This document shows positions 6,641 to 50,390 of a stretch of DNA of 64,000 nucleotides, piece by piece. The DNA is taken from contig NW_026775411.1 in the NCBI RefSeq assembly GCF_030867095.1, positions 39,117 through 103,116 on the forward strand, written 5' to 3'. A program made the translations under genes and the position numbers. The notes under the pieces are model-generated. The model saw only the letters and a program-made list of their open reading frames with translations. It was not told the origin of the DNA and did no database searches. Numbering within the stretch: the stretch's first letter is position 1; each line of letters begins with the position of its first letter. This stretch comes from Alligator mississippiensis. Its lineage: Eukaryota > Chordata > Crocodylia > Alligatoridae.

Positions 6641-7283
6641 GAGGTGACTATACTTGTAGAACAACGAAGGAAAAATTGCAAGTATAGCCCGGGTCAGACT
6701 GATCACCTGAACTACCCTCTCCGTGAACACGAATCTCTTAGTTCACACTGAAGCCGCAGAGCACCTGAAAAGGACTGAAGGAAGGGGACTTAGTCCTATC
6801 ACTGCTGAAGCCAGCCTATTGAATTGTATTGCTGAGCCCATTTCATTGAACCGTACTACTGAGGCCAACCCATTAAATCGTACTACTGAGGAATGAAACC
6901 ATAGTTTGGTATTTGGCTTCTCGGAATTCTAGGATTGTAAGTATATTATGAAAAATAATAGTATTGATTCAAATTTAACTTTTAGTTGCAATTGTAGTTG
7001 TTTTTGTAACACTAATTCTTATAGTACTGTTTAGGAAGGAAGTGCATTCGGAGCATTGTTTCTGATATATGTAATTATTCTGTTTTTAATGTTTGTGGTG
7101 TTTCTTAAAGCTAAGCAGTGTTATATACGTAGCAAAGAGTTTTAAAATAAAATTGTGTTGTATAAATTAAGTGTGTAATCATTGTGAAATCGTGCAATCA
7201 GTTAACTACTCCCCCAGCCAGTGCATCAAAACGAATCAGTAAATTGTGAGGGATTTTCTCTATTCCATAACCCACTAGAGACA
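6641..7283 (+). repeat. ERV-1 5' LTR, lacking most of U3
   Basis: This matches 14,419-15,061 of the 3' LTR almost base for base. The upstream 416 bases of the 3' LTR (14,003-14,418) are absent here. The copy ends GAGACA at the PBS. It contains a strong splice-donor motif GTAAGT at 6,937 and a counterpart of the small LTR frame at 14,726-14,923, which here is interrupted by a TAG near 7,033. The left edge lies about 30 bases downstream of the position matching the A/T-rich AATAAAAA box of the 3' LTR, so it may coincide with the transcription start. Confidence 0.85.
6893..6942 (+). promoter_or_regulatory. LTR splice donor with upstream hydrophobic leader frame
   Basis: GTAAGTAT at 6,937 is a strong splice donor; the 3' LTR has the same at 14,715. 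Just upstream, an ATG at 6,893 opens a short frame rich in Leu, Ile, Gly, Phe and Trp whose phase at the donor fits the env frame at the acceptor (exon start 11,922). The LTR exon may therefore supply the Env signal peptide. The frame carries a TAG at 6,902-6,904, and the 3' LTR has the same TAG, so the defect predates insertion or translation starts elsewhere. Splicing is inferred, not observed. Confidence 0.5.
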
Positions 7284-8911
7284 TGGCGTCACAAACAGGA
7301 TGCGCTGGTTGCCCATTTCAAAATGGGATGAATGTGTTGCAGCATTGCACGTTCCACAATGATAACGAGGGAACTTGGAAGGTAAATATAAGGGATCTTA
7401 ATAATGAGGATGAAACAATCACGTATAGTTTTATGTTTACACAAGAAAGTTTAAGATGCTGTTTGGGAGGAATTCAGAAATCATATGGTCCACTAGATTG
7501 GAGTTTAGAAAATAAAGAAGTAAAGCCAGAAGTAAAGGTGTGTAGGAAGAAAGAAAGTAGAAAAGAAGAGGGAGGTTTTCGAGAGATAATGCGAAAGGTG
7601 TTAGGGAAAGGAGTTTACGATCAGTTAAAATTGCCACAAGCAAGGGAGGTAATGTGTTTAAAAGCAGGAGAGATACTAAGAGAGTTAGAAGTAAGTTGCA
7701 AACAAGCAGCAGGAGGTCCTTTGAAAAAACCTAATTACCCGTCCCTCTTAGGAGAGGCAGCTCGGGGAATCATTCACTTATTGCATGAGGTAGAAAATTT
7801 AGCAGCTGAGAATAATGTTTTAAAATTGGTTATGAACCAGAGCAAAGTGAATGAAACAGAGGAGCATGGAGAGAAACCAAGTAAAATATCTGTGCAACCT
7901 ACTGCACCCTCTCCAATTACTCCATCCACTCCACCCCCATATGCAGAAGTTACAGTAGAATTGGAAGAATTAAAAGCTGACTATGAGGTAGGAGAAGTAG
8001 CTAAAGGTAGAGCAGAGCCAATACTGGAGGCATGTCCTATAGTAACTACTAGTTGGAAACAACAAGGCACAAATCCTGCGATTAGGCAGAATATCTATAG
8101 AGAAAGGAACAGGGAGGAAATAGAGGATTTGGCTAGGACAACAGCACGACGTACTAATGAAAATTGCTGTGTGTGGGTAGGAAGGATTATAGAGGAAGAA
8201 AACGGAATAGGGACCCTATTAAGGTCAGAGGAGGCCCTTCCACTAATAAGAAATTTGGGATGGAGTAAGGGGGCAATTCTCACAAATACCATGAATATAA
8301 TCCCGGGAGGCATGTATCCCATAACTTTAGCTGGATTAATTGCCACTGGGGTGAAAAATCATTTGGGAGCTCTAAGCTTTCCCCAAAATTTAGAAGGGGG
8401 CATGAATAGCATCAGGTACATAATATGGGGAATTAGTTTTGCCCATTGGACAGCACCCCCAAACACCCTATCGGCAGTACAACAGAGATTAAGGGATGAT
8501 TGTTTGTTTATCAGCACTCCTGAACAAGTAATTTGCAACAGGATGTCGTTAGAGGTAGCAGCAAATGTTCTGAAAACTCCAGGAGTAAAAGCCTGGCTAC
8601 TGCCGCTGGTGGGGCAGACACCCTGGGAAGTAGCTGATCAAATAGGAACCATAGTGCAGGAGGAAGAAATGAAGAAAAAGCCCAAAGTATATGTAACAGG
8701 AAAGGGTCCAAACAAACCTACCCCAACCAAAGAGGATAAGGCTATGTTTGGATTCTTGCTCAGTAAAGGGTTTGAAAGGGAAGAATTAAGAAAGAATACG
8801 CTGAAGGAAAACAAGCAGTTAGCCATAAGCCATGGATGGAAACCTTGGAAAGATTGGACTGCTGAGAAACAAAGCAACCCAAAAAACGGGTCACGGGGGG
8901 AGAGCCAGTAA
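7283..8911 (+). CDS. ERV-1 Gag polyprotein
   Basis: A 542-codon frame, intact, encoding the structural polyprotein of the virus particle. The N-terminus (MASQTGCAGC) is encoded by the PBS. Residues about 200-225 are Pro/Thr/Ser-rich (PSPITPSTPPPYAEV); PPPY resembles a late-domain motif that recruits the budding machinery. Residues about 270-460 align with the minus-strand ERV-2 Gag (for example RNREEIEDL with RNRAEMQEL), which marks the capsid-like part. The C-terminus is basic and lacks a CCHC zinc knuckle, unlike most orthoretroviral Gags. The start is fixed by the LTR/PBS junction and by the same arrangement in ERV-2. An annotator without the ERV context would call it hypothetical. Confidence 0.85.
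   Translation: MASQTGCAGCPFQNGMNVLQHCTFHNDNEGTWKVNIRDLNNEDETITYSFMFTQESLRCCLGGIQKSYGPLDWSLENKEVKPEVKVCRKKESRKEEGGFREIMRKVLGKGVYDQLKLPQAREVMCLKAGEILRELEVSCKQAAGGPLKKPNYPSLLGEAARGIIHLLHEVENLAAENNVLKLVMNQSKVNETEEHGEKPSKISVQPTAPSPITPSTPPPYAEVTVELEELKADYEVGEVAKGRAEPILEACPIVTTSWKQQGTNPAIRQNIYRERNREEIEDLARTTARRTNENCCVWVGRIIEEENGIGTLLRSEEALPLIRNLGWSKGAILTNTMNIIPGGMYPITLAGLIATGVKNHLGALSFPQNLEGGMNSIRYIIWGISFAHWTAPPNTLSAVQQRLRDDCLFISTPEQVICNRMSLEVAANVLKTPGVKAWLLPLVGQTPWEVADQIGTIVQEEEMKKKPKVYVTGKGPNKPTPTKEDKAMFGFLLSKGFEREELRKNTLKENKQLAISHGWKPWKDWTAEKQSNPKNGSRGESQ
7284..7301 (+). other. Primer-binding site, tRNA-Ser type
   Basis: The 18 bases after the LTR terminal CA begin TGGCGTCAC and end CAGGAT. From memory this is complementary to the 3' end of a vertebrate tRNA-Ser, with about one mismatch. 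The ATG of gag is formed by the last A of the LTR and the first TG of the PBS, so the PBS is translated as the first Gag codons. Confidence 0.7.
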
Positions 8912-8929
8912 AATTCTGTCCCTCCCCCG
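8881..8929 (+). promoter_or_regulatory. -1 ribosomal frameshift signal, gag to pro-pol
   Basis: The heptamer A AAA AAC (8,881-8,887) sits in the gag frame as ccA|AAA|AAC, the canonical slippery form. After a 6-base spacer, CGGGGGGAG (8,894-8,902) can pair with CTCCCCCG (8,922-8,929); the gag stop lies in the loop. A -1 shift here leads into an open frame running to the protease. ERV-2 has the same heptamer at the same place (43,265-43,271). Confidence 0.8.
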
Positions 8930-10377
8930 AGACAGCTGAAATGATGCCAGAACAACAAGAATTGAATGGAGAGTCTCGCCCTTATGTAACCTTAGAATGC
9001 GTGAATCCCAAAGATTTAAGATTAGAGAGAGCAACTTTCCTAATGGATACAGGGGCACAAGTTAGTATGATCAGGAAGGCAGACTCACATTTACTTATTC
9101 CAAAAAATAAAGAAATTACCATTGTGGGAGTGAATGGGAAATATACTAAACATCAAGTTGAAACTATAATCCTAACAGGGGGAAAAGAAATAGAAGTATT
9201 AATTGGCTCAAAGAATATATTAGGCATGAATAGCATAAGGCATGATCCTTATCTAAAAGAATCATTAAAGGAGATGTTGCCAATTGAGGTCTCAGAGGAG
9301 GAACTCCACAAGCCTAAGTTAAAGAGTAAAATTTCACCCATGCCAAAAAAGGTGCGTGATTACCAAATTAAGGACTCATTATCAGGCCCAACTCAAGTAT
9401 TAATAAAAGAGCTAATAGATGAAGGAGCCATAGAATTAACCACCCCAGGCAAATATGTTAGTCCTGCATGGACTATAGACAAGGGCCATGGGAAAGTCAG
9501 ATTAGTAGTAGATTATCGAGAAGTCAATTTAAGAATAGAGGATGTGAGTATTATGCAAAATCACACTGCACAAGAAATATTGTATTCCATTAGAAATTTA
9601 AAAGAACACCCATGGGGAGCAAGTATTGATTTGAAGAATATGTTTTTCTCAATCCCCATAAATGACAAAGAAGGTTTGTTAAACATGAACCTTAATGGAA
9701 ACACATGCCGATGGAAGGTATGTCCACAGGGGTATAAAAATTCACCAGCTATAGCTGATAGTTGTATAGGCAAAACCCTTATCAAATTTCAGGCAAACAC
9801 AAATTATATAGCTGAAGGAATAAAGATCTGGCAATATGTAGATGATATACTAATAACTGGACCCACTGAGAAACAGGTTAATGAAACTCTAAAGCTGTTA
9901 ATTAAACATTTAACTCAGGAAGGTTGGAAGGTAAATTCAGATAAAACAAAATGTGCAGCTACAAGTTTCACCTTCTTGGGGAGAAAAATGAATGAAAAGG
10001 AAATAACCCCAGAAGATAAATGGGTAACAGCTTTCAAGAAAGCAATAGAAAAACCTCCAAAGACTGTAACTGAAATGCAAGCAGTATTAGGAATTATTAA
10101 TTGGTTAAGAGACTGGATTGAAAATGCCACAGTACAAACCAAGCTAATCAGGGCAGCAATTAAAAGTAAGCACTGGTCAGCAGCAGCTCAAGGCCAAGTA
10201 GAAAGAATAGGAGCAGATTTAAGTTCAAAACAATTAACTTTACATCGAATACATAATCAGTTACCAGTGGAATTATACATCAGGACAGGTATAGATTGGC
10301 TAAGTGGAAAGGCAGTCCAAGGAAGTAACGTGATAGACTTATGGAGTCTCACACTTAAAGGATCTGAAGCTAGGTAA
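8881..10377 (+). pseudogene. ERV-1 protease and reverse transcriptase (pro-pol, first part)
   Basis: The -1 frame from the slippery site is open to 10,377. The aspartic protease comes first, with the active-site motif MDTGAQVS near 9,045 and a conserved ILG motif near 9,218. Reverse transcriptase follows: a VRLVVDYREVN block near 9,500, a WGASIDLKNMFFSIP block near 9,620, a VCPQGYKNSP block near 9,720, and the catalytic YVDD near 9,835. No stop separates protease from polymerase. The frame ends in TAA at 10,375-10,377, but the reading frame of the next domain is already open in another phase, so a single-base indel around 10,340-10,360 has broken the polyprotein. Protease and RT themselves look intact. 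Confidence 0.88.
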
Positions 10378-11116
10378 AGTATTACTTGGGTTACACCACT
10401 GCTATAAAAGGTACAGCCGAGAGTTAACAGAGAATGCAACGATCCACCATCCTGCAGGGGCAGAGCTTGGAAATCTTAATGCTCCGCCTGTTGATTTTGA
10501 AGGAAATCAGAACACTTGGGTAAAGTTAGCCTCTAGCCTGATGCAAAACTGGGGAAAGAATTGGAAAGGGCGAAGAATCCCAAATGACAGCCAACAAATA
10601 ATGCCACAATGGACACATGATGGAGGCATGTTTATGGAAGGATGGGGATTCAGTGATGGTTCAACCAAAAATGGGGATAAATTTGGTTGGAAGTGTACCA
10701 AGTGTCAGGTAACTCACCTAACCAATAACATTAATAATTGCAATGCCCAATTATTAGAATTGAAGGGGATGCAAGCATTAATACAACATTGTATGTTGAA
10801 TCATGGTTCAGACATCTGGGAGTTGGTAACAGATAGTAAGTACATTTGGCAAGTGCTAACAAAGGGAACTAAGCCAGCAGTACATTTAGAAATTTGGGAA
10901 AATATCTTGAAGGTGTTAACTACACATAGAATCCCAACATTTGTTACCCACACCAAAAGTCATACAAGAAATACTAACCAACATCATGCAGCTTTGGATA
11001 AAGAAGTACAACATTTTAGCATAGAAAAGAACCAAGAAGCTGAATTAGAACCATACCTTACATGGTTACATGAATACAGTGGGCATTGGAACAAGTACGG
11101 GAAAACCGAATTTTAG
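10352..11116 (+). pseudogene. ERV-1 RNase H domain (pol, second part)
   Basis: This continues pol in a shifted frame. Acidic residues typical of RNase H are visible: Asp in FSDGSTKNG near 10,652, Glu in LLELKGMQ near 10,758, and Asp in VTDSKYIW near 10,831, with a following THTKSHT segment. The function would be removal of RNA from RNA/DNA hybrids during reverse transcription. The end of the frame (LHEYSGHWNKY) already holds the His-His half of the integrase zinc-binding motif, so a second frameshift falls near 11,100 between the His and Cys pairs. Confidence 0.8.
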
Positions 11117-11881
11117 AAGTTAATGGACGGGGGCCAATAAATGCCTGTAATCTAAGGAAAAGAATTAGACAACAGTGTGAAGTATGTAACCAGTTCAAAA
11201 TTTCACCCAAAAATCAGTATGCGTATAATTATCTTAAAAGTGACTATTTCAACCCAGGTGAAACATGGCAAGTGGATCTAATGGGGCCTTTAACAGATGC
11301 AAAAAGGTTCCCAAGTGGACTGGTAGTAGTGGATATGGGAACAAGAATGATTAATTGTGTTCCACTAAAACATACCACAGCTAATGATGTTGTAAAAGCA
11401 TTAGAAAAAATTGGTGGTTCATGGAAGATCCCAAAACAAATTGCTACAGATGGTGATCTTCCATTTCAAAGTAAAGGATTTATTGAATGGTGCCGAAATA
11501 ACAATATAGAACACCATGTGCACACTCCTTATCATCCACAATCTAATGGGGTTGTGGAGAGACACTGGTATTTTGAAGACACAATTGAAAACAAATTTAA
11601 AATCAAGTTCTTTAAAAAACTGGGATGCAGTATTGCATGTAACCTTAATTCAGTGCGATAATGATAAGACCATGTGGTTGAAACACGAAAAGAAAGAGTT
11701 TCCAGTGTGGACATATAAGTATAAGAAAGGTGATAAAGTGTGGATACACCTACCCAAAGAAGAAAAAGTAACAAAAGGTGGAATTGAACAATTGGGGAAA
11801 CGTCCCAACACTTATTTTTGTTTAACTGAGGAAAATCAAACAATATTAGTACACCAAAGTTGGCTAACCTCACGAAGCTAG
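11086..11881 (+). pseudogene. ERV-1 integrase (pol, third part)
   Basis: The integrase cuts and joins viral cDNA ends to host DNA. The zinc-binding Cys pair is CEVC near 11,178. The catalytic core shows Asp in TWQVDLMGPL (about 11,270), Asp in IATDGDLPF (about 11,448), and Glu in SNGVVERHW (about 11,554). The core frame stops at 11,661. The C-terminal domain (KYKKGDKVWIHLP near 11,720, ending SWLTSRS) lies in another frame, so there is a frameshift or deletion near 11,620-11,660. The gene is dead but recognisable throughout. Confidence 0.85.
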
Positions 11882-11903
11882 GCCTCACAAGGACCTAAGC
11901 AAT

Positions 11904-11921
11904 CATTTAATTTTGTTACAG
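11904..11921 (+). promoter_or_regulatory. Env splice acceptor
   Basis: A pyrimidine-rich run ends in TTTTGTTACAG at 11,921, followed at once by the env frame, which has no ATG of its own near the start. This is the expected acceptor for a spliced env message using the LTR donor at 6,937. Confidence 0.6.
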
Positions 11922-13968
11922 GTGTCAAGGATTGAAGTGGCAACAGTGGGAGATCAAGGATGAAAATGATCCCAGAGATGAAAACTGGATGTGGCTAACC
12001 AATGCAACATTATGCAGACCAGTGCATAGACCACCCAACGTGATTCTGGGATATAATGCTGATGTATGGAATCTCACAATACCAGGTTATTCCCTTAAAT
12101 GTCATATTCCTTGGGAAGGACCATGGAACCCCTCCAAATTATTAAATTCTCGTGATATAATTAATGGACCATATCCATATGGCATTAAATTAACAGAAGC
12201 AGGGATAAATGAAACTGAGTACTATCCAACACCATGGGGTTTTGTGAGAACACACCCAAAAAAAGGTGTATTTGGGGTAAAATTAACTATTATACCAGTA
12301 GGGTTATTTGAAAATGCTCCAGTAGACCCCTATGGTATCATCCAATGTAAGTGGAATAAACTTTTCTGGAAACCTAACACTGTCCAGAACAGTGGCCGGC
12401 TTACCACTAGCACTTGGTGTCGGACTATAGTACATACTAGAAAAGGGATATTACCTTATCTCTTAATTATAAGGGATCCACCGCACCAAGAACAAAGCGC
12501 AATAGCCTGGCATTTAAAATCTCCTGAATATTCCCGCACTGCCACGCGCATTACATATAACATTAACTGCACGCAACCACAAAGAAAGCGCAGGTCAGTC
12601 TGGACAGACTGGGCACAGCAAAATCAAGATAAAGAATGGGAAGAAACAGTAAAACCTGAATTCATGTCACTTTTGGGATTTGCCACTACACATGTGACCA
12701 TTACAAAAAACATTACACAAAGAATGCAAAATTTCATAACATTAATTGAACAACATGAAAATATCACTAATTCTAACATAAGGAAAATCCAAGCTAGATT
12801 ACAGTTCATCACCTGTACACAATTTCATGAATCCAGCACCTTTGAACAACTTATTGTAACAAATTTAAAGAAAAAATTCACAGATGCTGGACATACACCT
12901 TATGTAGAATGTCATAGTTAAATAGCATAATTATTTAGTCACGAAAATCAGGGAAGTGTACAATGGCTTTGTTCAGTGAACCCACTAATGGGTTGGACAG
13001 TACGTACCCGCATTGGAGGAAAACATACAGGTACATTACCCACCATGCGGTGTACCAAGCATAATTGCACACAAGTAAACACCAACCAAGTAAAATTAAA
13101 TGATAAATCTTCTGAATTGGAAGCATGGAATCAAACCCATATTGTGCAATGTGCTGATTGCAAATGTAAAATCTACACTAAAACTGTTCAAGTAAACATA
13201 TTAAACTATGATTATGCTTTTGACTTAACCCCCCAAGATGAAGCAACGCAGTATTATGAAAGAGCAGAAATGGGATATGATATTCCTCAACTCCAGCCCT
13301 GTAAGCAAGAGGGTCAGTTCTGGAGAGATACAGGGGAAATAATGGAAATAAAATATAATATCCCTCAAGACTCACCCTGTGAGCCTGGAGCTCAGTTATG
13401 GAGAGACACATTTGCAAGGAAATGTGTGTGCATAATAGAGCGAAAAATTAATAATCTACACTCCAGTATGGAAGTAGTACTTTGGTCCAAAACAGGTATC
13501 CCATGGATCGCTGCAGATCATTGGAGCACGACTGAGGAGAATAAGGTGCATTCCCAACTATCTGCGTGGGACATTGACTTGCAGGAATTAAATTTGACTC
13601 ATATATCGTTTAACTTGGAAACTGGACAATTAGTGATGTTGTCAAAGGACTATGGAGAACACATTACTTACCTGAAATTACTCAACGCCAGCAAGATCCT
13701 CAATGCACCATCTGCTTCGGTGTTAGAAGGACTAGCCACGATTGGAAATGCAGCGGGGAATGGTGTTAAATCTACTATACATGAAATAGGATCGATAGGA
13801 CAACAAGTATGGAACACTATAAAGACTGTATTTTTGGGAAAATGGGTGATATATGTTATAATAAGCATCATAGGATTGTTTGGGTTAATCATTTTTGGAA
13901 AATTAATTTTGTGTATGTTGTCATGGAATCATCATAATAAGTTTGTAAGGCTTAGTAATGAAATATAA
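11922..13968 (+). pseudogene. ERV-1 envelope glycoprotein, broken
   Basis: One frame runs from the acceptor to 13,968, interrupted by TAA codons at 12,919 and 12,928. The order is a surface-like part with several N-glycosylation motifs, a basic RKRR cleavage site near 12,585, a long ectodomain with many Cys, and a membrane anchor at about 13,843-13,910 (hydrophobic Ile/Val/Leu/Gly run) with a short tail. No classic hydrophobic fusion peptide follows the RKRR site directly, and I do not see the usual CX6CC motif. I cannot place it in a known Env class. The leader appears to come from the LTR exon. With two stops it cannot give the full glycoprotein. Confidence 0.8.
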
Positions 13969-13989
13969 TTGTAATCAAACTGCCTAATG

Positions 13990-14002
13990 GGCACGGGGGG
14001 AT
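13990..14002 (+). other. Polypurine tract
   Basis: The sequence GGGCACGGGGGGA stands directly before TGTCATATTG, the likely start of the 3' LTR. This is the expected primer for plus-strand synthesis and fixes the LTR left edge at 14,003. Confidence 0.65.
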
Positions 14003-15061
14003 GTCATATTGAATGAAATAGTTTGAATGTTTGTAAAGGTTCCCCATTAGCCAGTTTCAGGAAGAAGATAAGATTTGTCTCCTTATCTAGTTGTTTGTTT
14101 TGGGGACTACGTGCAAAAGGTCCTGACTTTGCTTCAAGTCTTAATTTAAATTTAATCTTTTAGAAATCTTTTACAAAGAGAGCAAATATCCTGAATTCCA
14201 AGAGATCAAACCCTGAGGCCTTTTGACCAGGTTGGTAAGAAAAGGGCATTTGCAGTGATATGGAAGTTTCCCAAAGGTAATTTAAAATGTTCAACGAAGG
14301 TAAAAGAATCTGTTGAGTAAGATCCGAGCCCAAATTTGGGAGCAGTGATATATTGAGTAGGAGGAGCCCACTGACGGCAGCTCGCTCAATAAAAACCGTA
14401 ACTTACTGTCCCAATTTGGAGGTGACTATACTTGTAGAACAACGAAGGAAAAATCGCAAGTATAGCCCGGGTCAGACTGATCACCTGAACCACCCTCTCC
14501 GTGAACACAAATCTCCTAGTTCACGCGGAAGCCGCGGAGCACCTGAAAAGGACTGAAGGAAGGGGACTTAGTCCTATCACTGCTGAAGCCAGCCTATTGA
14601 ATTGTATTGCTGAGCCCATTTCATTGAACCGTACTACTGAGGCCAACCCATTAAATCGTACTACTGAGGAATGAAACCATAGTTTGGTATTTGGCTTCTC
14701 GGAATTCTAGGATTGTAAGTATAATATGAAAAATAATAGTATTGATTCAAATTTAACTTTTAGTTGCAATTGTAGTTGTTTTTGTAACACTAATTCTTAT
14801 AGTATTGTTTGGGAAGGAAGTGCATTCGGAGCATTGTTTCTGATATATGTAATTATTGTGTTTTTAATGTTTGTGGTGTTTCTTAAAGCTAAGCAGTGTT
14901 ATATACGTAGCAAAGAGTTTTAAAATAAAATTCTGTTGTATAAATTAAGTGTGTAATCATTGTGAAATCGTGCAATCAGTTAACTACTCCCCCAGCCAGT
15001 GCATCAAAACGAATCAGTAAATTGTGTGGGATTTTCTCTATTCCATAACCCACTAGAGACA
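14003..15061 (+). repeat. ERV-1 3' LTR, full length
   Basis: About 1,059 bases from TG (14,003) to CA (15,061). A GATA-type palindrome (GATAAG...CTTATC) lies near 14,070. AATAAAAA at 14,388 could be a TATA-like box or a poly(A) signal; a second AATAAA is at 14,924. The segment from 14,419 is shared with the 5' LTR. It includes the splice donor at 14,715 and the small frame at 14,726-14,923. The shared tail reads CACTAGAGACA. Confidence 0.85.
14726..14923 (+). CDS. Small LTR-encoded membrane protein frame
   Basis: A 65-codon frame inside the LTR starts nine bases after the splice donor. It predicts a Cys/Ser/Asn-rich N-terminal part, a hydrophobic span (FGALFLIYVIIVFLMFVVFL, roughly residues 34-53), and a basic tail ending in KEF. 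Its stop overlaps an AATAAA. The 5' LTR counterpart has an in-frame TAG near 7,033. MMTV Sag is a known precedent for an LTR-coded membrane protein, but there is no sequence similarity that I can see. It may be a chance frame. Confidence 0.35.
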   Translation: MKNNSIDSNLTFSCNCSCFCNTNSYSIVWEGSAFGALFLIYVIIVFLMFVVFLKAKQCYIRSKEF

Positions 15062-21493: not shown

Positions 21494-23149
21494 TGGCTGT
21501 TTTGAGGCATGGGACCTGGGATCACCGCAGACCTGGCTGCTACCAGTTACCAATTAATCATGATTCCCTCAGGGACCAGCTCAATACACAGCACCAAGAA
21601 CAATCCACCGCCCCAAGACAGACGCCGTCAGTGCACTTAACAAAAGATGAAGCCTCTTCAGACTATCTACAGGAAAACCGGTCTCAGTTCTGCGCATCTC
21701 CATTTGATTTTGTAAGCATGAGTGCCTTGAGGCTGGCCACAACCAAAATGGCTCAGGATTAAAAAGTTAAGAGAAAATGTCAAGATGCCGTTTCATAGAC
21801 ACCTTGTTGTAAAAGGAAGAGGATTGGAAAAAAAGAAAATAAAACCCCATAATTTCAAGCTGGCTCCTACATGTCTGGTTATTCCTTAAAACTTGACGTT
21901 TTTCCTGGTGGTTAATCCATTTCTTGAGATGTTCCAAACCAGATAACCCCTGGTCACTGAGAAAGGTCATTCATTTAAATTGAAACTGTTATATAATAGG
22001 ATTTTCCCTGTCACTTATGGCTTGGGACCCTCTTGATTTACACAATTCAAAGAATGCTTTGAAGAGGCTGGACTAAGGGGGTAAGAAAGCTGTAAAGCAG
22101 CAAACAGGGTGCTTCAAGAGAGAAAAATCTCTCTGACATCACCCGCTGTTGTTCCCAAGAAGCTGGCAGAAACAGATCCTCTCCCTTCAAGGATCGTGCT
22201 GGGAACTTTGCTTGTCATCAGATCACCCGAGTGCCTGGGAACAGTGACACCCCAGCTCTCGCTCTCTCTTTCTCTCTTTTTCTTTTTGTCTCTACGCATA
22301 GCTTTCTGAACCTAAATTGTATTAGTTAAGCTTCAGCTAAGTTTCCCCAAATACTCAATTAAACCAGGGGAATATTGTAATTGTTTTGTTTTCCCTTGCA
22401 TGTCTATTACTACTAGTACCATTATAAATTGGATATGCTTCACAATAAATAACTTTTATAGTCAAACTGGAGGTAACCAGGTGTATTTTTCCTTCTCTAC
22501 TTCCCTTCCCCACTTGCTCTGCAGCAACGCTTCTTTTACCTAAGCCAAAGATCCCTGTGAAGCCCAGAAATACTGCGGGGTCCGCTCATCAAGAGGCTAC
22601 CACTACTAGGACAGTTAGGGCAAAAGATTGGGACGTGCTGAGTTTGAGACACATAAGGGGATCAGCTTGTATAGGCTGATTGGCCCACTTTGGCTCAGGC
22701 GTGCCCTAATGAACTGAAAGCTGGCCCGTGAGGGTGTCAGCCGGACACCCAGCCGGATTGAGAGGGATTCTGTTCACTGAGTGCTGGTGTCTGACTGCAG
22801 TGTAGTGTTACCTTAATGAACTGATTCCTGGCACATGAAGGTGTCAGCCTGTACATGCTGATCAACCCGGCCGGGTCAGGCATGTCATGTTAGTGTGTGT
22901 GTGCATTTGACTGATTTAGTGGCTGGTGTGTGTGCGCGCGCGCGCACATTTGACTGATTTAGTGGCTGGAGGAACCCAGCCCTACTGAAACGGAGTCCTG
23001 CAAGATAGCTCCATTGTGGGTGAGGTCTTGCAGAAGGGAGAGATACAGCTCCGTACAGAAACACAGGTAACACGAGCAGCACATTGATAGAATTGCAAAG
23101 ACCCTAGAAATGTACCCCTAATAAATGAGCACACCCCAAAGTGACAGGC
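21494..23149. other. Intergenic, with LTR-like and simple repeats
   Basis: No gene. Around 22,390-22,480 a TATAAA/AATAAA-bearing A/T-rich segment resembles an LTR 3' portion, uncertain. At 22,690-22,880 a diverged tandem pair repeats ATGAACTGA...GGTGTCAGCC. At 22,893-22,950 a TGTGTG/CGCGCGCG run could form Z-DNA. Confidence 0.4.
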
Positions 23150-23864
23150 AAATCTAGTAACAGCTGGGATCATGGCTGGAAATCCATTTTGGGCCACCCC
23201 ACACCATCTGGGCCAGGCAAGACACTGGTCATCAATTCAGTCTGTAATCTCAGCCCAAATGCCAGGTCCTTAGTCAAGCATGTATACTTAGTACCATGGG
23301 AATGGGGGGCTGTTAGTTGGCAGCCTGGTATGAAGAAACCACGCTCTGGTCTGGGCCAGACTGGTCAGTGGTGTCCGGGAGAGTCCCCCGGTGCCATAGA
23401 GGCATGGTGTGGGGTGGCCCAAGAAGGATTTCCATCTCTAATCCCAGCCCATGAGAAATTCCTTCCTTGAGCCTGTCTACTTAGTACAGTGGGGATGGGG
23501 GAACTGGCCCAAACAGTATTTCCAGCCATAACCCCAGTCCAAAACCAGGTTCTTATTCAGGTCCATGTACTGAGTACAGTGGGCATGGGGGGCTGGCAGT
23601 TGGCAGCTTGGCACGCAAAAACTGCACTTTGGGCCAGGCAAGACTCTGGTTGGGGGGTGTGGGATAGTATCCAGTGCCACAGAGGCATGGTGTGGTGTGG
23701 TCCAAAGAGGATTTCCTGTCGTCAACCCAGCCCCAAACCCAGTTCCTTATTCAAGCCCATATACTTAGGACAGTATTTGTGGGGGCTGCCAGTTCATGGC
23801 CTGGCACAGCCAAACCATGTCTTCAGTCAGGCAGGACAGCAAGGGGATGTCTTAGACTGCTAAA
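23150..23864 (+). repeat. Tandem array, about 190-200 bp unit (left part)
   Basis: Diverged units recur, each with GTGGCCCAAGAAGGATTTCC-like, CCCAGCCCAAA-like, TACTTAGTAC-like and TGGCAGCCTGGCA-like blocks. Recognisable phrases fall near 23,170, 23,415, 23,499 and 23,700. One spacing is short, so a unit is partly deleted. The array resumes at 24,362. Confidence 0.75.
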
Positions 23865-23936
23865 GGGGATGTAGCTCAGTGGTAGAGTGCATGCTTTGCA
23901 TGTATGAGGTCCTGGGTTCAATCCCCAGCATCTTCA
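23865..23936 (+). tRNA. tRNA-Ala (TGC)-like sequence
   Basis: A 72-base cloverleaf starts GGGGATGTAGCTCAG and has anticodon TGC at 23,897-23,899. The A box (TAGCTCAGTGGTAGAG) and B box (GGTTCAATCCC) are intact. The acceptor stem pairs fully if two G-U pairs are allowed, and there is no encoded CCA. It is fused directly to a CR1 tail, inside a tandem array, so it may be a retroposed head rather than a working gene. Confidence 0.75.
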
Positions 23937-24361
23937 CTTCTCATGGGGCAGCAGGGCAGGCCCTACAGAGACAGGTTAGAAGGTCTCAACCTATTCAGCC
24001 TCCACAGGAGAAGACTGAGAGGGGATCTGGTGGCAGTTTACAAACTCCCCAGGGGGGACTGGAGAGAATTGGGGGAAGCTCTGTTCCCCCCAGGCACCCC
24101 CAGGGTTACTAGGAATAACACCCTCCAATTGTTAGAGAAAAGGTTCAGGCTGGACACCAGGAAACATTACTTCACACTTAGGGCTGCCAGGCTCTGCAAT
24201 GGGCTCCCAAGGGAGGTGGTGCTCTCCTACCTTGGGCGTCTTCAAGAGGAGGCTGAGCAGATATTTGGCTGGGGTGACATGATCCTGGCACCCATTCCTG
24301 CCTGAGGGAGGGAGTCAGACCTGATGAGCTGTTTAGGTCCCTTCCACCCCCAAGTACTATG
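23937..24361 (+). mobile_element. CR1 3' fragment attached to the tRNA-like head
   Basis: It codes for the last part of a CR1 reverse transcriptase (LFSLHRRRLRGDLVAVYKL, FRLDTRKHYFTLRAARLCNG, LPREVVL) and ends with the CR1 3' UTR and ACTATGATACTATGAC microrepeat. It starts exactly after the tRNA-like unit and splits the surrounding tandem array. Together with the tRNA head it looks like a single retroposed chimera. Confidence 0.8.
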
Positions 24362-24862
24362 ATACTATGACTCTGGTCAGAGAAGACCAGGAGAGTCCCC
24401 TGGTGCAACAGGGACATGCTGTGAGGTGGCCCAAGACAGATTTCCAACCACAATCCCAGCCCAAGATCCACTTCCTTACTCAAACCCACATACTTAGTAC
24501 CATGGCTGGGGGGAGCTGTCCGTTGGCATCCTGGCAGGGCCAAACCACGAGTTGGGCCAGGCAAGCTGTGGTCAGGGATGTGCAGGGGAGTCCACTGGTA
24601 CCACAGAGTGACAGCGTGGGGTGGCCCAACAAGCATTTCCATCTCTGATCCCAGCCCAAATCCCAGTTCTTTATTCAGGCCCCTGTAGTTGGTGGCGTCT
24701 GGGCGGACGATCAGCTGGCAGCCTGGCACAGCCAAACCGTTTCCTGGGACGGGCAGGACTCTGCAGAGATAACCAGGAGAGTCCCACGTGCCACAGAGGC
24801 ATGGCGTGGGCTGGTCCAAGAAGGATTTCTAGCTGTGATCCCAGCCCTAAATCCAGGTCCTT
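24362..24862 (+). repeat. Tandem array, about 190-200 bp unit (right part)
   Basis: This continues the array at 23,150-23,864. GTGGCCCAA...ATTTCC blocks near 24,425, 24,620 and 24,805 give spacings of 195 and 185. The break between the two parts is the tRNA/CR1 insertion. Confidence 0.75.
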
Positions 24863-24884
24863 ATGTGAGAGACTAAGCATCCAG

Positions 24885-25480
24885 GAGGCGCTGAGAAGGC
24901 GGGTCCCCGGGGTGGGGAGGGAAGGAGCAGGCGGCCCCGGGGCTCCCGCATGCCGGCTCGGGGCACGTGCAGCGCCGTGTGGGCGGGCGGGCGGCTCCGC
25001 GCTGCCTCCCCGGGCGCATCTCGAGCCCCTGCCCGAGCCCGGAGCGGAGCTGCGCCTCCCCCGCCGCTGCCCCCGGCCGCAGCGCCGCGCTCCTCCGCGC
25101 CCGCACAGCGGGTCCCGCGCACCCCGCCTAGGCCACGCCCCCTGGGGCGGAGCTCCGCCCTCCGCGGCCGCTCCTGCGCTGAGTGTCCCGCGCACGGCGC
25201 AGGCGCGCCTTCGCCCAGGCCACGCCCCCCGCGCCGGCAGGGCAGGGGCGGGGCCAGAGAAGGGGCGGGAGCTTAATCTTTCCATGCCGGCGTTCATTGG
25301 CTGGGAGGCGCTGCGCGGGCCGGCAGCCGAGTGGGTGCGGTGGACGCCCGTCTGGGCTGAGAGCTTTTAAATACGACTGTAGCCGCCATAACGCGCCACG
25401 CGGTCGGGGAAGCTGGCGCGGGCGGGTGTTGGGGCTGCGGCCCGGCGGCTCCGGGGCCCTCGGCTCGAGATGGGCTCAGG
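24885..25480 (+). promoter_or_regulatory. CpG island, candidate promoter
   Basis: About 600 bases are very GC-rich and dense in CpG, with several GC-box matches (GGGGCGGGGCC, CCACGCCCCC) and a TTTAAATA box near 25,367. It could drive a transcript to the right (an ATG at 25,470 opens about 37 codons) or to the left. No gene is recognised next to it. Confidence 0.55.
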
Positions 25481-25989
25481 CCTCCAGGAGCAGAGTGACC
25501 AAGTGACTCGAGGGTCCCCCAGCCCTGCCCACAGCCGTTATGCTGAGTTTGTTATAGTCAAGAGTTGCTCTCCACTTCCATGATTTGAAAGAGATCTCCT
25601 TGACTCCTAACCGCTCGCTCCAAAATGCGCGTGCCAGCGTACCCCCGCGCACAGGCACTGTTTTGCTTGTGCGCTGCTCAGGGGAAAGCTGCTTTTAAGG
25701 GAAGGAGCCATGGCTTCAGCGTACGGCCTCTAACACGAGGCATTGCTATCAGTGAGGGACTTGAGGCCATACCACGAGGCAAATCACAGATAGTACCTTA
25801 CGCTCTGAGAGGGTTGATTTTTATTTATTTATTTACTATTTTTAAGCATTTCTTTTCAAAATGTGGGTTGGAAGTTGTATCTAGACTACGGTCAGGGTTA
25901 CCCAAGCAACAAAGCTTTAACTTGACCTGTCAATACTCATGTATTATAAAAACAGCAAGATACTCATACAAAGACTTCTTCATTTTAAA
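25481..25989. other. No gene seen
   Basis: A short frame from 25,470 ends near 25,583. Otherwise A/T-rich DNA with a TTTATTTATTTATTT run near 25,820. Confidence 0.4.
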
Positions 25990-27617
<1,628 letters not shown>

Positions 27618-28762
27618 AATGAAACCATAATACAAATTTTGTGGGAAAAATTGCATGAGAAAAGTGCGCAAACTATTCTTGTGCATCATCCTGAATATGG
27701 GTTTTCTATTCAAAAAGAATACCCTGAAAGAGTGTCATTTAAAACCTCTTTGTTCAATGATATAAAAATCAACCTAAATAATGTGAGTTTCTATGATGAA
27801 GGAACATATAAATGCAAAGCAGTCACGTTCCCATTAGGAAATGCAGAGTCATTAACAACTATAACTGTAATTGTCGAACCCACCGTGAGCTTTACAAAGG
27901 AACCAACTCCCTTCATAGATGGTGAAAATTGGACAGTGGCAGCTATCTGTACAGCAGCCACTGGGAAACCCGCTGCAAATATAAGTTGGGAAAGAGATTT
28001 TGGTAAAATAGAGAATAGTTTAATTTCCTTTCCAAATAGAACGGTAACAGTTATAAGCTGATATAAGATCATTCCCACTAAATTTGCGAGGGGAAGGCGT
28101 ATAACTTGTATCGTGAAACACCCAGCTTTGGACAGGGAAATAAGGTATTCTCACGTACTAGACATCCAATATGCTCCTGAAGTGTCAATAACTGGCTATA
28201 ATAGAAATTGGCTTGTTAGACAAAGAAATGTTCAACTTAAGTGCAATGCTAATTCTAACCCGCCGCCTGTAAAGTTTACCTGGGCCAGAATAGATGGACG
28301 ATGGCCTAAAGGCTTACTGGTTGTAAACAATACCCTGCATTTTAATAGCTCACTAACCTACAATCATGGCAGGACTTACATTTGTGGGGTGACAAATTCC
28401 CTTGGTCAAGGAAGCGATCAAAAAACTATTCATGTATTAGATCTCTCCACCATCACTACCACACGATCACCCACGGTTTCATGGTATCTTTAACTAATAG
28501 CGTTCCGGGTTTAGCATCAGCATTCACCCTAACAATAATACAGGAACGCAAGTGGGATACCATCATCGCTAGTGTAGTGGGTGGAATTATCCTTCTAATA
28601 CTTGGAAGTATTTTAATTGGCATTGTCTGCTGTGGGAGAAGACGGATGTTTTGCGACCAGTACTTCGTTATGAGCCGTATTCCACTGACTAATAAACGAG
28701 GGGAGTCCCAAACAGATGTTCTCCAATCAGACGATGACTAATAGTTGTTGTTATATGTTTAA
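27618..28762 (+). pseudogene. Copy A: intronless NECTIN3-like sequence captured by a retroelement
   Basis: Nectins are cell-adhesion Ig proteins. The order here is most of the V domain (NETIIQILWEKLHEKS; KAVTFPLGNAES), a C2-type domain (VEPTVSFTK; ICTAATGKPAANISWE; FARGRRITC), a second one (YAPEVSITGY; NSNPPPVKFTWARIDG), a membrane span near 28,570-28,640 (Ile/Leu/Gly-rich), a basic CCGRRRMF stop-transfer and a short tail with ESQTDVLQSDDD. These match NECTIN3 in order and wording as I remember it. No introns interrupt domains that host nectins split over exons. A TGA at 28,059, a one-base loss near 28,487 and TAA TAG at 28,739-28,744 kill it. The signal peptide and first strands are missing; upstream is hAT sequence. 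An LTR starts about 70 bases downstream. Confidence 0.85.
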
Positions 28763-28832
28763 GTTATTGTATTGTATAGTTTGTTAAAAAGACCGGTCTG
28801 TAAAATTGTTTGTTTATATATATATATATATA
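28763..28832 (+). repeat. Spacer with (TA)n before the LTR
   Basis: A TTGTTAAAAAGACC stretch is followed by a run of TA repeats that ends at the LTR TG. A normal polypurine tract is not evident. Copy B has the same layout with (TA)n/(TG)n. Confidence 0.6.
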
Positions 28833-29517
28833 TGTTGGTCGCTTAAGCTCCGTCAGGTCAGTGAATCCTGAAACAAAAATTCCTTATAACGTGCTCGTGT
28901 GTCTAAAATCCCAATTGTGCCGTCGGCAAGGGGGCATGTCGCAACCCAATGATTTTGGTGCCTCGACACGATGGAGTTTTCCCGCCACGAGAGTCTCTTG
29001 CACAGCAAAAGTTTTCTGCTGCAACAGAAAACCCCGGTGCAAGAGAGTTCCCGCCATTCGCATGCAAATTTGTGTCCCACTATTGGCCAGTTCTAAATTA
29101 TTCCTACGTGGCGGCTAGCGATTGGCTTGTTAGCCGTGTAAAATGTTGTGCGACTTCCGCCCAAGTCGGAGAACTTTGAGCACGCTGCAGAGTGCCTCTA
29201 AAGATATCTGACTTGCGGCTGAGCTGATCGATAGCCTGATCACCTATCGATTCTTCTCCCCGTCGCCGAGCGCAATCCTTCGACGTACCCTTTCCCTGCC
29301 GGCTTAATTTGTGGACAGATTCGCTGGCCTGAGCCTTGCCAGCTGGAGCAACTAGTGGAGTTGTTTAAGCGACCGGACCACCTGCGTCGCAGCTACTAGC
29401 GGCGTAAGTAAAGTTTTTTGCAACCAATACGCTTTGTCTGCCTCTCCATTCACCAGCCCGCCCAAACGACCGAGCAATTTGTATATCACCTCGAGTCGGT
29501 TCCGGCCGTCCGAGACA
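28833..29517 (+). repeat. LTR A, 3' of the NECTIN3-like copy A
   Basis: About 685 bases from TGTTGGTCGC to CCGAGACA. The block from GTTCCCGCCATTCG through CCCACTATTGG to GGCGGCTAGCGATTGGCTTG aligns closely with the reverse complement of the ERV-2 LTR (45,560-45,660) and with LTR B. A splice-donor motif GTAAGTAAAG is at 29,404, as in ERV-2 (45,277). What follows the terminal CA is GTTACC, not a TGG primer site, so this is a 3' LTR and not the start of another provirus. Confidence 0.8.
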
Positions 29518-45146: not shown

Positions 45147-45843
45147 TGTCGCCGCCGAGAGCCGCGGCGCGGGGTTCGGGGCCTTAGGAGCCCTAGTCGG
45201 CGGGCGGGTACTTGTGACACTTGGAGTGGAATCAGGTACTGACGCGTTTTGGTTAAGCAAAAAGATAGTTTACTTACACTGCTCGTACAGCGCAGGTCAG
45301 AAGCTTGCTTCGATTACAGTTGTAAACAAAACTTGGGGCGGGCAGAAATTACAGAGTTCGTTTGGTCGGTCTGCAGATGTGTCGGACGGCAGTTGTCGGG
45401 TTACGTCTAGGTCTAGGTTGGTGACGGGGAGCAATTAGAGGTTGATCAGGCCCCTAAGTTCTTCTCTAAGACACACGCGGAGTTTGCTAGGCTCCACAGC
45501 GGGCTCAGAGCTCTCCAGGAGATGTATGTGGAGTTCTCCAACTTGGGCGGAAACTGCTTCAACCTCTTATATGGCTAGCAAGCCAATCGCTGGCCGCCAG
45601 GTAGGAATGATTTAGAACAGTCCAATAGTGGGGTACGAATTTACCTAAGATTGGCGGGAACTTTTTCTAGGTCATTAATATATAGTCACTGGGCTCTGGA
45701 GTTTTCCACTCGTGACCTACTTACATGACCTACTTACAAAATGATTGACAGACTGTGCCCTCTGTATCAAACTATGGGATTCTCCGCTGTGCTATAGGCA
45801 TATGAACAATGGGTTGTGACATAGCCCTGTGACTCAGGTTACA
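45147..45843 (-). repeat. ERV-2 5' LTR
   Basis: About 697 bases read on the minus strand, from roughly TGTAACCTGAG to GGCGGCGACA. The left edge is approximate. A TATA-like CATATAAGAGG is near 45,572, and a GTAAGTAAAC donor motif is at 45,277. The middle aligns with LTRs A and B. Confidence 0.7.
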
Positions 45844-46683: not shown

Positions 46684-48551
46684 TTAATGAAAAATAAATG
46701 AAGGGAAAAGTCACAAACATGATGGAAGCAGTAGGGATGAAAGAGCAGAACTAGAAGCAGGTATTTTGGGTCTATGCCTGGTTCTTGAATGTTGTTAGTG
46801 GTGGTGTCCTACCTACAGGAGTAACTTAGTTTGGTATTTGCAATGAAGTATTCATATTTAGTATTCCATCTACAATTAACACCCCTGAAACATGAAAGAC
46901 ATCGATTTTTGCCATTTGAAATGGGTATTTAGTCGATCTAATAAAAGACAGCGCTTTTACCCAAAGAACATTGCCTGCTGAAAGAAACGGTGGTGTTCCC
47001 GACTGTGATAAAGAAAGGGTGACCAAATGCCAGTATGGTAGATAAAAAAATGACATCGGAGAGGCTTGATCACCCTCACCGAGGTCCTGCGTCCACGGCT
47101 CCCTTCCCCCTGGACGCCCCTATATCGGTTAACTGCATCTCTTGGATGCGAGACGAGCTCTCGGGTCCCCTACGGTTTGGTTTGTGTTTTGGAAGTTATT
47201 GTAAAAGGGAACTGCCGGCGCGGAACTGTGAACGGAGCATTTACGTGCTCCACGGGGTAACTCTTACTGATGGTGCCTACACTCTGCATCGACAGCGCGA
47301 GTCCCTGTACTTCCGTAGTGTGAGTAAAGCATTCATTTGTTATATTGCCTTCGGGTTCTTCTTGGGCGGGAAGAGTAAAGGAAAAGGGAAACGAGATTCC
47401 AAACCCTTTCGTCCCCGGCCTGCTCGGATCCAGGAGTAAATCAATCACACCCCTCCCCCGCCCCCTGCCCCCGTATCTGTACCACACCGACCACACAATG
47501 CGCTTTGCTCAGGAGGGAGCTCCTGCAGAGCAGACGTGCCCACTGACCTTTCTCTGCTCTTACCTATCGGGCAAGGTTCTTCACCCAAGGAAACGGGCTC
47601 TCTTGTGATATGAAAAGTAAACTAATATTCAAAACCATTGGAAACTCGGCTTCCATGTCCTGTAATCCTTTGTGTTTGCAGATTCCTCTGACTCTTGCCC
47701 AGGTGGGGAGGGGGCCTTGGGACATGGGGAGGAGGGCAGGGTGGCCCAGGATGCTGGGAGCGGGGGATATGCCCTGCTGCCTCTTGCCCAGCCAGAACTG
47801 GCGGGGGCCAGGGGCACAGTGAAGTGCAGCTTGCTCCGGGCTGATGGGGGCAAGCAGTAGCAGGGCATAGACCCCACTCCCAGCACTGCCATGCCCACAT
47901 CCCATGCCTCCCTGCCCTGGCTGGGTAGGTGGCAGCAGGGCATCGCCCGCCGGTTGCCCAGCCCGGGTGGGGGGAGTACAGGATGCAGGTGGGGGGCAGT
48001 GCAACTCGACCTTGGCTGCCAGGCACCTGTCACTGCGTCTGGCCCATCGCATGGGCCTGGCCCACCTGAGTGTGGCACTGTGTGCTTTCGGGTGGCTCTG
48101 GGTCACTTGCGCAGTCACTCAGGACCTTGTGCCGCTCTACTTGTTGAGCTGGGATGGGTCCTGCATGCATGAAACAGGCCCAGCCCAATGGTGCGTGGTG
48201 CCCGTGCACACTGGACGTGGTCCGGCATGACAGGCGGTCTCCGTGAGTGGGCCCAGGTGATGTGGCAGAGAAGCTGCCAGTGCCGAGCCGCGCTGCTCCG
48301 TGCCGCGTGGGGGGATGTGCCAGGAGGTCCCAAATCCCCCAGTGCTCACTGCTGCTCCCAGTGGGATGTGCGTGCAGGTATCTGGGCCTGGCAGGGGGGG
48401 AAGGCTGTGGTCCTGGGGGCAGCAGTCCATGTGCAGGTTGGGGGCTGTGCCCTGTTGGGGGGCAGAGGACCCACCCTTCCTGAGCAGCCCCCTCACACAG
48501 TCCCCACTCACCCGCAGTCCCCCCACAATCCACCCACACCTACCCCCTCTA
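46684..48551. other. No gene; one MITE-like tail, GC-rich stretch
   Basis: A Chompy-like tail (CGATCTAATAAAAGACAGCG...CCCAAAGAACATTGCC) lies near 46,932-46,980. A frame at 47,035-47,439 has no recognised domain. 47,690-48,540 is GC-rich with overlapping frames on both strands and no domain. Confidence 0.4.
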
Positions 48552-49602
48552 TTCAAAGAAAATACCACGGGAGGGTGTTATCTAGAAGTTCTTCGCCCAC
48601 TGATGCGACGATCAGTCTGCACAATGTGAGTTTCTATGGTGAAGGAAAGTATATATGCAAAGTAACTACATTCCCATTGGGAAATACACAATCGTTAACA
48701 ATTGTAACTACTGGTTGAGCCCACTGTAAGTTTTACCAAGGGGCCAAATTCTCTAATAGATGATGGAAAGTGGGCAGTGGCAGCCATTTGTACAGCAGCC
48801 ACTGGGAAACCCGTTGCAGATATAATTTGGGAAGGAGACTGGTAAAATGGAGTGTAGTTCAATTTCCTTTCCAAATAGAACGGTAACAGTTATAAGCCGA
48901 TATAAGATCATTCCCACTAAATTTGCGAGGGGAAGACGTATAACTTGTATCGTGAAACACCCAGCTTTAAACAAAGAAATAAGATACTCTCACGTACTAG
49001 ACATCCAATATGCTCCTGAAGTGTCAATAACTGGCTATGATAAAAATTGGTTTGTTGGACAAAGAAATATTCAGCTTAAGTGCAAAACTAATTCCAATCC
49101 ACCACCTCTAAAGTTTACCTGGGCCAGATTAGATGGACAATGGCCTAAAGGCTTACTGTCTGTAAACAATACTCTGCATTTCAATAGCCCACTAACCCAC
49201 AATCATGGCGGGACTGACATTTGGAGGGTGACAAATTCCCTTGGTCAAAGAAGCAATCAAAAGACTATTTACGTATTAGATCTCTCCACCATCACTACCA
49301 CACGATCACCCACGGTTTCATGGTATCCTTCAACTAATAGCATTACGGGTTTAGCGTCAACATTAACCTTAACAGTAATGCAGGGACGCAGTCGGGGTAC
49401 CATCATCGGTAGTGCAGTAGGGGTAAGTCTCTTTCTAGTACTGGGAAGTATTTTAATTGGCATTGTCTGCTATGGGAGAAGACGGATGTTTCGCAACGAG
49501 TACTTCGTTATGAACCGCATTTCACTAGCTAATAAGAGAAGGGAGTCGCAAACAGATGTTCTCCCATCAGATGATGACCAACAGTTGTTGTTCTATGTAT
49601 AA
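48552..49602 (+). pseudogene. Copy B: second intronless NECTIN3-like sequence
   Basis: It starts inside the V domain at a different point from copy A, then gives KVTTFPLGNTQS, AAICTAATGKPVADI-like wording in shifted frames, and from 48,847 a 251-codon open frame: FARGRRITCIVKHPALNK, YAPEVSITGYDKNWFVGQR, NSLGQRSNQKTIYVLDL, a membrane span near 49,420-49,470, then YGRRRMFRNEYFVMNRI and ESQTDVLPSDDDQQLLFYV. The last two residues are Tyr-Val, as at the afadin-binding end of host nectins, although the tail is much shorter. Frame losses lie near 48,710 and 48,840. An LTR follows after about 85 bases. The upstream flank is unrelated to copy A's. Confidence 0.85.
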
Positions 49603-49690: not shown

Positions 49691-50246
49691 TGGTTGCTTG
49701 AGCTTTGTAACGCCAATGAGTCCTTAAATGAAAAATTCCTTATAACATGCTCATGTGTCTAAAATCCCAGTCGTGCCGTCGGCAAGGGGGCATGTCACAA
49801 CCCAATGATTTTGGTGCCTCGGCACGGTGGAATTTTCCCGCCACACGAGAGTCTCTTGCACAGCAAAAGTTTTCTGTTGCAATAGAAAACTCTGGTGCAA
49901 GAGAGTTCCCGCCATTCGTATGCAAATTTGTGTCCCACTATTGGCCAGTTCTAAATTATTCTTATGTGGCGGCTAGCGATTGGCTTGCTGGCCGTATACA
50001 ATTCTGTGCGACTTCCGCCCACGTCGGAGAACTTGGAGCACGCTGCAGAGTGACTTTGAAGATTCCTGACTCGTGGCTGAGCTAATCGATAGCCTGATCA
50101 ACTATCGATTTTTCTCCCCGTCGCCGAGCGCCATCCCTCGACGTACCCTTTTTCCTGCATGCCTAGTTCGTTTACGGATTCGCTGGCCTGAGTCTTGCCA
50201 GCTGGAGCAACTCGTGTAATTATTTAAGCAACCGGACCACCTGCGT
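49688..50246 (+). repeat. LTR B, truncated
   Basis: It aligns with LTR A from TGTTGGTTGC onward through CCCACTATTGGCC and GGCGGCTAGCGATTGGCTTG, and stops at CCACCTGCGT, where the MITE at 50,247 begins. The U5 end and donor motif are lost. It is preceded by (TA)n(TG)n. Confidence 0.8.
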
Positions 50247-50390
50247 GGCCCAAACACCCGTCTTCAGGCTCTCTCCCTATGCCTGAAGAAGGGTGTTTGC
50301 GCATAAAAGCTTGCAAAGAACAATTTTCCAACTATTAGTTGGTCTAATAAAAGATATCGCATTTACCCAAAGAATCTTGTCTCCCTCTGC
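50247..50390 (+). mobile_element. Chompy-like MITE
   Basis: AACACCCGTCTTCAGGC pairs with GCCTGAAGAAGGGTGTT around a short loop, followed by CCAACTATTAGTTGGTCTAATAAAAG and CCCAAAGAATCTTGTC. I recall this as the crocodilian Chompy family. Confidence 0.6.

What the first reader, a model, noticed from the sequence alone, without database searches (positions are those of the whole stretch)
27618..29517. A retroelement that appears to have captured a NECTIN3-like gene (copy A)
Directly seen: an intronless nectin-type sequence (V, two C2-type domains, membrane span, short tail) ends about 70 bp before an LTR that runs to a terminal CA. The LTR family is that of ERV-2 by sequence. From family knowledge, host nectin genes have introns between these domains and no LTR after the tail. 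Inference: a retrovirus carried a processed nectin in the env position. A host receptor or adhesion protein inside a viral genome could alter target choice, block superinfection, or act as a decoy; the sequence does not decide. The alternative is a host NECTIN3 transcript that used an LTR as its last exon and was copied back by CR1; against this, LTR A extends to the U5 end rather than stopping at a poly(A) site.
Basis: partly seen in the sequence, partly recalled or inferred. Interest (0 to 1): 0.93.

Follow-up and report, generated by a model that had tools for sequence, protein, structure and literature searches.

The report
Alligator retrovirus that captured nectin-3
The window holds broken remains of an ancient alligator retrovirus that had swapped its envelope gene for a copy of the host cell-adhesion gene nectin-3, a capture already published in 2014; here many more copies were found, with signs that the captured outer domains were kept working while the virus spread.

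Summary
Window 27603-28741 is an intronless nectin-3 (nectin-1 a distant second) followed by a retroviral LTR at 28937-29517. The inference holds for its relatives: in the same genome (taken as Alligator mississippiensis, from an exact 428-aa match) 13 of 16 dispersed family loci examined have LTRs on both sides, gag-pro-RT-RNaseH-integrase upstream, and nectin-3 in the env position; 5-bp target duplications are identical in 11 of 13. Host NECTIN3 lies elsewhere, split by introns. This is not new: Chong et al. 2014 (PMC4299795) described nectin3 replacing env in CrocERV31, from six insertions.

Additions. (1) At least 75 intronless copies outside, and 70 inside, a 6.1-Mb segmental array to which this window belongs; copy A multiplied there by DNA duplication. 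(2) Changes private to one copy look neutral (omega 1.10-1.25), while changes shared between copies show constraint on the Ig ectodomain (0.52) but not on stalk/TM/tail (1.10): selection acted while the virus replicated, not generally afterwards. (3) One copy is an in-frame gag-nectin fusion lacking most of pol, perhaps a second capture. How nectin helped the virus is unproven; spread by adhesion, also speculated in 2014, is my best guess.

The parts
27603..28741 (+). copy A, intronless nectin-3: V domain without its first part, two C2 domains, membrane span, short tail; signal peptide and start missing
28059..28061 (+). in-frame TGA in copy A; 15 of 19 array rows list one TGA in the match
28925..28936 (+). 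polypurine-tract-like GGCAAGGGGGCA directly before the LTR; exact in 8 of 13 LTR pairs elsewhere, varied in 5
28937..29517 (+). 3' LTR of copy A, complete (TGTC...GAGACA)
24830..27602 (.). sequence that stands where longer array copies carry part of gag, pro, pol and the 5' part of nectin; holds hAT-transposase-like reading frames (recalled resemblance, no call)
22308..24829 (.). flank shared (93%) with 3 of 3 longer array loci that still have gag-pol before nectin
48548..49602 (+). copy B, second nectin-3 relic; frame changes near 48709 and 48841
49793..50249 (+). LTR of copy B, 3' end missing
45532..45662 (-). LTR stretch of that ERV, 82% to LTR A

Best explanation
Copy A is about the 3' quarter of an endogenous provirus of the CrocERV31 nectin lineage (Chong et al. 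2014, who class its A. sinensis relative as ERV4): a retrovirus with LTR-gag-pro-pol in which processed nectin-3 sequence took the place of env. Shown: the anatomy, the target duplications, a host gene elsewhere, and the capture in many copies. Shown: copy A is broken and belongs to a 6-Mb segmental array on contig C1. Inferred from longer array copies: it lost gag-pol there. Shown by counts: the Ig ectodomain was constrained while the lineage replicated, and changes after insertion look neutral. Inferred: nectin was made as a surface protein in place of Env and helped spread by nectin-nectin adhesion (attachment or cell-to-cell transfer), as Chong et al. also speculated. Likelihood: provirus identity 0.97; nectin useful to the virus 0.75; use by adhesion or attachment in place of Env 0.45.
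For: (nectin-3 best). (94 scored of 363 candidates, each row a single match; 75 outside the array, 54 of those 75 without a stop in the match, recounted). (LTR pairs in 13 of 16 dispersed family loci; 5-bp duplications identical in 11 of 13, one mismatch in 2; LTR distance 0.024-0.052). (3 of 3 longer array loci: window flank, part of gag, pro-pol, nectin, same 3' side as the window). (host exon matches 52 kb apart). (41 copies: private omega 1.25, 5 nonsense with 5.7 expected; shared 0.64, 0 nonsense with 13.9 expected; ectodomain shared 0.52, stalk/TM/tail 1.10; RT and IN shared 0.21 and 0.25). (six Ig cysteines kept in 39, 39, 40, 40, 40, 40 of 40).
Against: The nectin ectodomain is less constrained than RT or IN (0.44 on the 17-copy set against 0.21 and 0.25), as if helpful and not essential. 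The private/shared contrast is not significant for C2-1 alone (p 0.11) and absent for stalk/TM/tail. Nothing here shows expression or a particle. The split is a proxy for branches, not a codon-model test. An env-type start context was found in only 15 of 44 copies.
Confidence: 0.9

Rival explanations
1. Host NECTIN3 transcript that used an LTR as its last exon and was copied back by CR1.
For: The window copy alone, 5' truncated with no 5' LTR, would look like this.
Against: Relatives have 5' and 3' LTRs, gag-pol and 5-bp target duplications; longer array copies have gag-pol before the same nectin; the LTR runs to its U5 end.
Confidence: 0.02
2. Nectin was a passenger in an element that moved inside the cell without an envelope (Chong et al. 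[quoted passage not shown]
For: Nectin stands in place of env; stalk/TM/tail unconstrained (shared omega 1.10); ectodomain less constrained than pol.
Against: No shared nonsense change where about 14 were expected, ectodomain shared omega 0.52, six cysteines kept: a passenger should have decayed between successive insertions. An env-less element that moves inside the cell and yet profits from nectin is not excluded.
Confidence: 0.2
3. The copies were taken over by the host as working nectin genes (exaptation).
For: Many open frames (54 of 75 without a stop in the match); Chong et al. report purifying selection; NCBI lists two A. mississippiensis 'nectin-3-like' proteins, one of them identical to L063.
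Against: Changes private to single copies look neutral, nonsense at about the expected rate. By a rough estimate 0.58 of copies should lack a stop by chance, and the scored list favours well-kept copies. Single exapted copies are not excluded.
Confidence: 0.05
4. Immune or superinfection role: captured nectin on infected cells occupies ligands of nectin-3 (recalled: nectin-1, nectin-2, PVR).
For: Would also constrain the ectodomain and spare the tail.
Against: No direct evidence either way.
Confidence: 0.2

Closest known systems
CrocERV31 nectin3 lineage (SFV1-5B_AMi, SFV1-5C_AMi), Chong et al. 2014, PMC4299795 (sections 10 and 15 read, other passages seen)
   Same: Nectin3 replaces env; A. 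mississippiensis; three Ig domains; 'EPKLIYFP' deleted in all copies but one. The paper gives about 76% identity to A. sinensis nectin3 for SFV1-5C_AMi; here 40 family copies give 71-88% over the aligned ectodomain.
   Different: Six insertions in the paper, at least 75 plus an array here; the parts read mention no array, no gag-nectin fusion and no split of selection before and after insertion. Its consensus sequences were not held for direct comparison.
CrocERV29 with captured KIT-ligand (same paper)
   Same: Host mRNA captured by a crocodilian ERV
   Different: KIT-ligand sits between pol and env, with env kept
Acute transforming retroviruses with gag-onc fusions (recalled)
   Same: L009: gag joined in frame to a host gene, most of pol missing, env-type leader after it
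   Different: The host gene is an adhesion molecule; no oncogenic role is known to me

Membership tests
CrocERV31 nectin3 lineage | nectin3 in place of env, after pol | tested here: met
   integrase upstream next to nectin in 16 of 16 dispersed family loci; copy A itself has lost the upstream part, but 3 of 3 longer array loci have it
CrocERV31 nectin3 lineage | deletion of EPKLIYFP in all copies but one | tested here: met
   deleted in 37 of 38 covered copies, kept only in L009; 6 of 44 not covered; copies A and B themselves not in that test
CrocERV31 nectin3 lineage | identity to the published consensus sequences | not testable with these tools
   Repbase and supplementary files not available
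Retroviral provirus | two LTRs and a target-site duplication | tested here: met
   13 of 16 dispersed family loci; 5 bp, identical in 11 of 13. Not met by copy A alone, which has the 3' LTR only, nor by the 3 array loci examined
Retroviral provirus | primer-binding site and polypurine tract | tested here: met
   TGG directly after the 5' LTR in 13 of 13, TGGCG in 10 of 13; GGCAAGGGGGCA before the 3' LTR in 8 of 13, variants in 5 (read). Which tRNA was not tested
Nectin-3 | closest to nectin-3 among nectins, V-C2-C2-TM | tested here: met
   the tree holds only nectin-3 sequences
Nectin-3 | C-terminal afadin-binding E/A-x-Y-V motif (recalled) | tested here: not met
   homology ends at or before residue 106 of a 197-residue host segment in the aligned copies other than L009, which runs to 157

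The most novel reading that the evidence does not exclude
A retrovirus lineage spread for a long time with a host adhesion receptor doing the work of Env: nectin-3 ectodomains on the particle or infected cell bound nectins on neighbouring cells. Nectin-3 may have been captured twice, once as a gag-nectin fusion and once in the env position. The contrast between constrained ectodomain and free tail is the mark this would leave.
Probability: 0.3. Interest if true: 0.85.

Novelty: already known. Interest (0 to 1): 0.5.

Why it matters
Captured host genes usually cost a retrovirus part of its own coding region and often its independence (Chong et al., section 15). Here an adhesion receptor stands in the env slot and the lineage inserted at dozens of sites. 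If the ectodomain was kept by selection during that spread, this is a natural experiment on whether a receptor-like protein can stand in for an envelope. It also qualifies a reading: open frames and purifying selection among copies need not mean that the host adopted them.

Tried and rejected
CR1-borne retrocopy of a host transcript: rejected. Host exaptation of the copies in general: not supported. One capture for all copies: the constrained tree is worse by 5.5 log units, AU p 0.047, but KH and SH p 0.109; left open, also because the family's branch is long. A leader test for an env-type start context found ATGGCNGC in only 15 of 44 copies, so I claim the shared leader only for the three copies aligned with L009 (L010, L012, L015). 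The far end of the array unit was not mapped. Other crocodilian genomes were not searched; the tool held none for this genome. No structure was predicted.

Full report
What was claimed. A retroelement at 27618-29517 carries an intronless NECTIN3-like gene directly before an LTR.

Check. The pieces 27585-28058 and 28062-28490 and the end of the frame at 28741 form most of a V domain, two C2 domains, a membrane span and a short tail. Against solved structures the best hit is the nectin-3 ectodomain (207 bits; best nectin-1 89 bits); copy B gives 237 against 116 bits. Copies A and B are 86% identical over 1706 aligned positions. Copy A has one in-frame TGA and a later frame change; copy B has two frame changes. 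The LTR of A is 28937-29517; its ends were fixed by comparison with 13 LTR pairs elsewhere in the genome.

Which genome. The window is G000:C183:39117-103116 in a 2.35-Gb genome. A locus on C14 (L063) encodes a protein identical over 428 aa to 'nectin-3-like [Alligator mississippiensis]' (P0001), so I take it as that species.

The family. A search with ostrich nectin-3 gave 94 scored matches of 363 candidates, each row a single match of at least about 240 residues; 19 lie in the C1 array or on C115 and C183, 75 outside. Of the 75, 54 have no stop in the match and 21 have one or two (recounted). Four of the 75 (C11:51.57, C11:51.79, C122, C149) have the same score and look like duplicates, and one is L009. 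I fetched upstream and downstream pieces for 20 loci: 16 dispersed family loci, L009, and 3 array loci. In 13 of 16 dispersed family loci LTRs of 530-593 bp flank the element and gag, protease, RT, RNase H and integrase matches lie between the 5' LTR and nectin; integrase is found next to nectin in 16 of 16 and gag-like sequence in 14 of 16. The three without an LTR pair are L025, L027 and L035; the 3 array loci have none either. LTR distances of the 13 pairs are 0.024-0.052, about 31-66 million years at the rate of 3.9e-10 per site per year used by Chong et al., which they call rough. Five-bp target duplications are identical in 11 of 13 and one base off in 2 of 13.

Host gene. Two exon matches of host nectin-3 lie on C1 at 257,027,027-257,027,182 and 256,974,426-256,974,599, each 98% identical, 52 kb apart; the second match shows one TAG, which I read as the intron's end. 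Flanks were not fetched.

How this copy came to be here. The 300-bp probe from copy A had 40 scored matches of 202 candidates at 98-100%, 38 of them in C1:471.45-477.40 Mb. Merging searches gives 70 distinct nectin copies in 6.1 Mb, 38 of copy A type, 37 on one strand and 33 on the other, with 20 close pairs 16.7-23.5 kb apart; 19 of the 20 join an A-type copy to another copy, as A and B lie 21 kb apart in the window. Only A-type copies were told apart; that the partners are B-type is inferred. L002 and L003 match the window at 99.8% across 3.3 kb including both flanks; three longer loci share the window flank 22308-24829 (93%) and then carry part of gag, pro and pol joined to nectin at window 27603. 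In the one of them that I aligned, L032, the family match begins inside gag. So copy A is the 3' part of a provirus; in its sub-lineage 24830-27602 stands in place of gag-pol; and the array grew by DNA duplication.

Selection. With one unbroken piece per copy (41 copies: 40 dispersed plus array locus L005), changes found in one copy only have omega 1.25 (155 N, 57 S, 5 nonsense with 5.7 expected); changes shared by two or more have omega 0.64 (195 N, 140 S, 0 nonsense with 13.9 expected), Fisher p 0.0005. With a lower transition bias the values are 1.10 and 0.56. By part, shared omega is V 0.47 (p 0.0024), C2-1 0.52 (p 0.11), C2-2 0.58 (p 0.019), ectodomain 0.52 (p 5e-05), stalk/TM/tail 1.10 (p 1). 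RT and IN give 0.21 and 0.25 shared, 0.88 and 1.12 private; the nectin ectodomain on the 17-copy set gives 0.44 and 1.11 (all). Sites with more than two bases, codons with fewer than 70% of copies, and 69 unresolved sites were dropped. The 17-copy set was partly chosen for open frames, which lowers its private nonsense count (1 with 4.2 expected). The six Ig cysteines are kept in 39-40 of 40 copies. Reading: constraint acted during replication of the virus, on the outer domains; after insertion the copies drift. The 2014 paper reports a codon Z-test on its copies; the parts I read do not separate the two phases.

The odd copy. L009 (C11:63.26 Mb) has a 922-aa stop-to-stop frame joining gag to nectin-3 with a 'KPKLIYFP' stretch and a longer tail. 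After it come a stretch matching the RNase H part of L010 and an env-type leader that L010, L012 and L015 have just before nectin, and a 335-bp LTR match on both sides, cut by the end of the fetched piece. Its ectodomain is 95.3% identical to the A. sinensis host protein, against 71-88% for 40 family copies. It resembles the exceptional insertion AKHW01077532 of Chong et al.; identity was not tested. The best tree puts it with two crocodilian hosts (support 99), apart from the family; forcing all captured copies together gives AU p 0.047, KH and SH p 0.109. Two captures are favoured, not established.

Literature. Chong et al. 2014 (sections 10 and 15 and passages) report the capture and speculate that captured nectin3 binds nectin1 and helped infection and proliferation. 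Three searches (listings only, open-access library) showed no other paper on it by title or abstract start. The parts read do not mention an array, a gag fusion, or a contrast before and after insertion; the supplements were not read.

Verdict. The finding is right and already known; the added value is scale, the fate of this copy, and the timing of selection.

Noticed in passing
G000:C1:471.28-477.40 Mb; window C183: A 6.1-Mb region with at least 70 nectin relics in both orientations (median gap between units about 100 kb); window 4200-4900 has 9 full or nearly full copies there at 97-99% and partial ones on C1:465, C11:51.6-51.8 Mb, C122, C149, C161. What drives this young segmental array is unknown.
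   Followed up: partly
window 6641-14718: A separate ERV with direct repeats of 300 bp, 98% identical, at both ends and long gag-, pol- and env-like reading frames.
   Followed up: no
L017-L036 after the 5' LTR: Two primer-binding-site types among the 13 LTR-paired copies: 5 like TGGCGTCACGAACAGG and 8 like TGGCGACGAGGATGGG; the second type falls in one part of the nectin tree.
   Followed up: no
L009 (G000:C11:63.26 Mb): In-frame gag-nectin fusion with near-host nectin-3, an RNase H remnant and an env-type leader; possibly an independent capture.
   Followed up: partly
G000:C1:98391704-98391886 and C3:286267239-286267421: Two further nectin-3-like stretches with 85-87% identity to host nectin-3 over 61 residues, not in the list and not fetched.
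   Followed up: no
P0069, Alligator sinensis nectin-3 record: The annotated protein begins with about 88 residues of reverse-transcriptase-like sequence (PF00078 is listed for it), probably a mis-predicted first exon.
   Followed up: no
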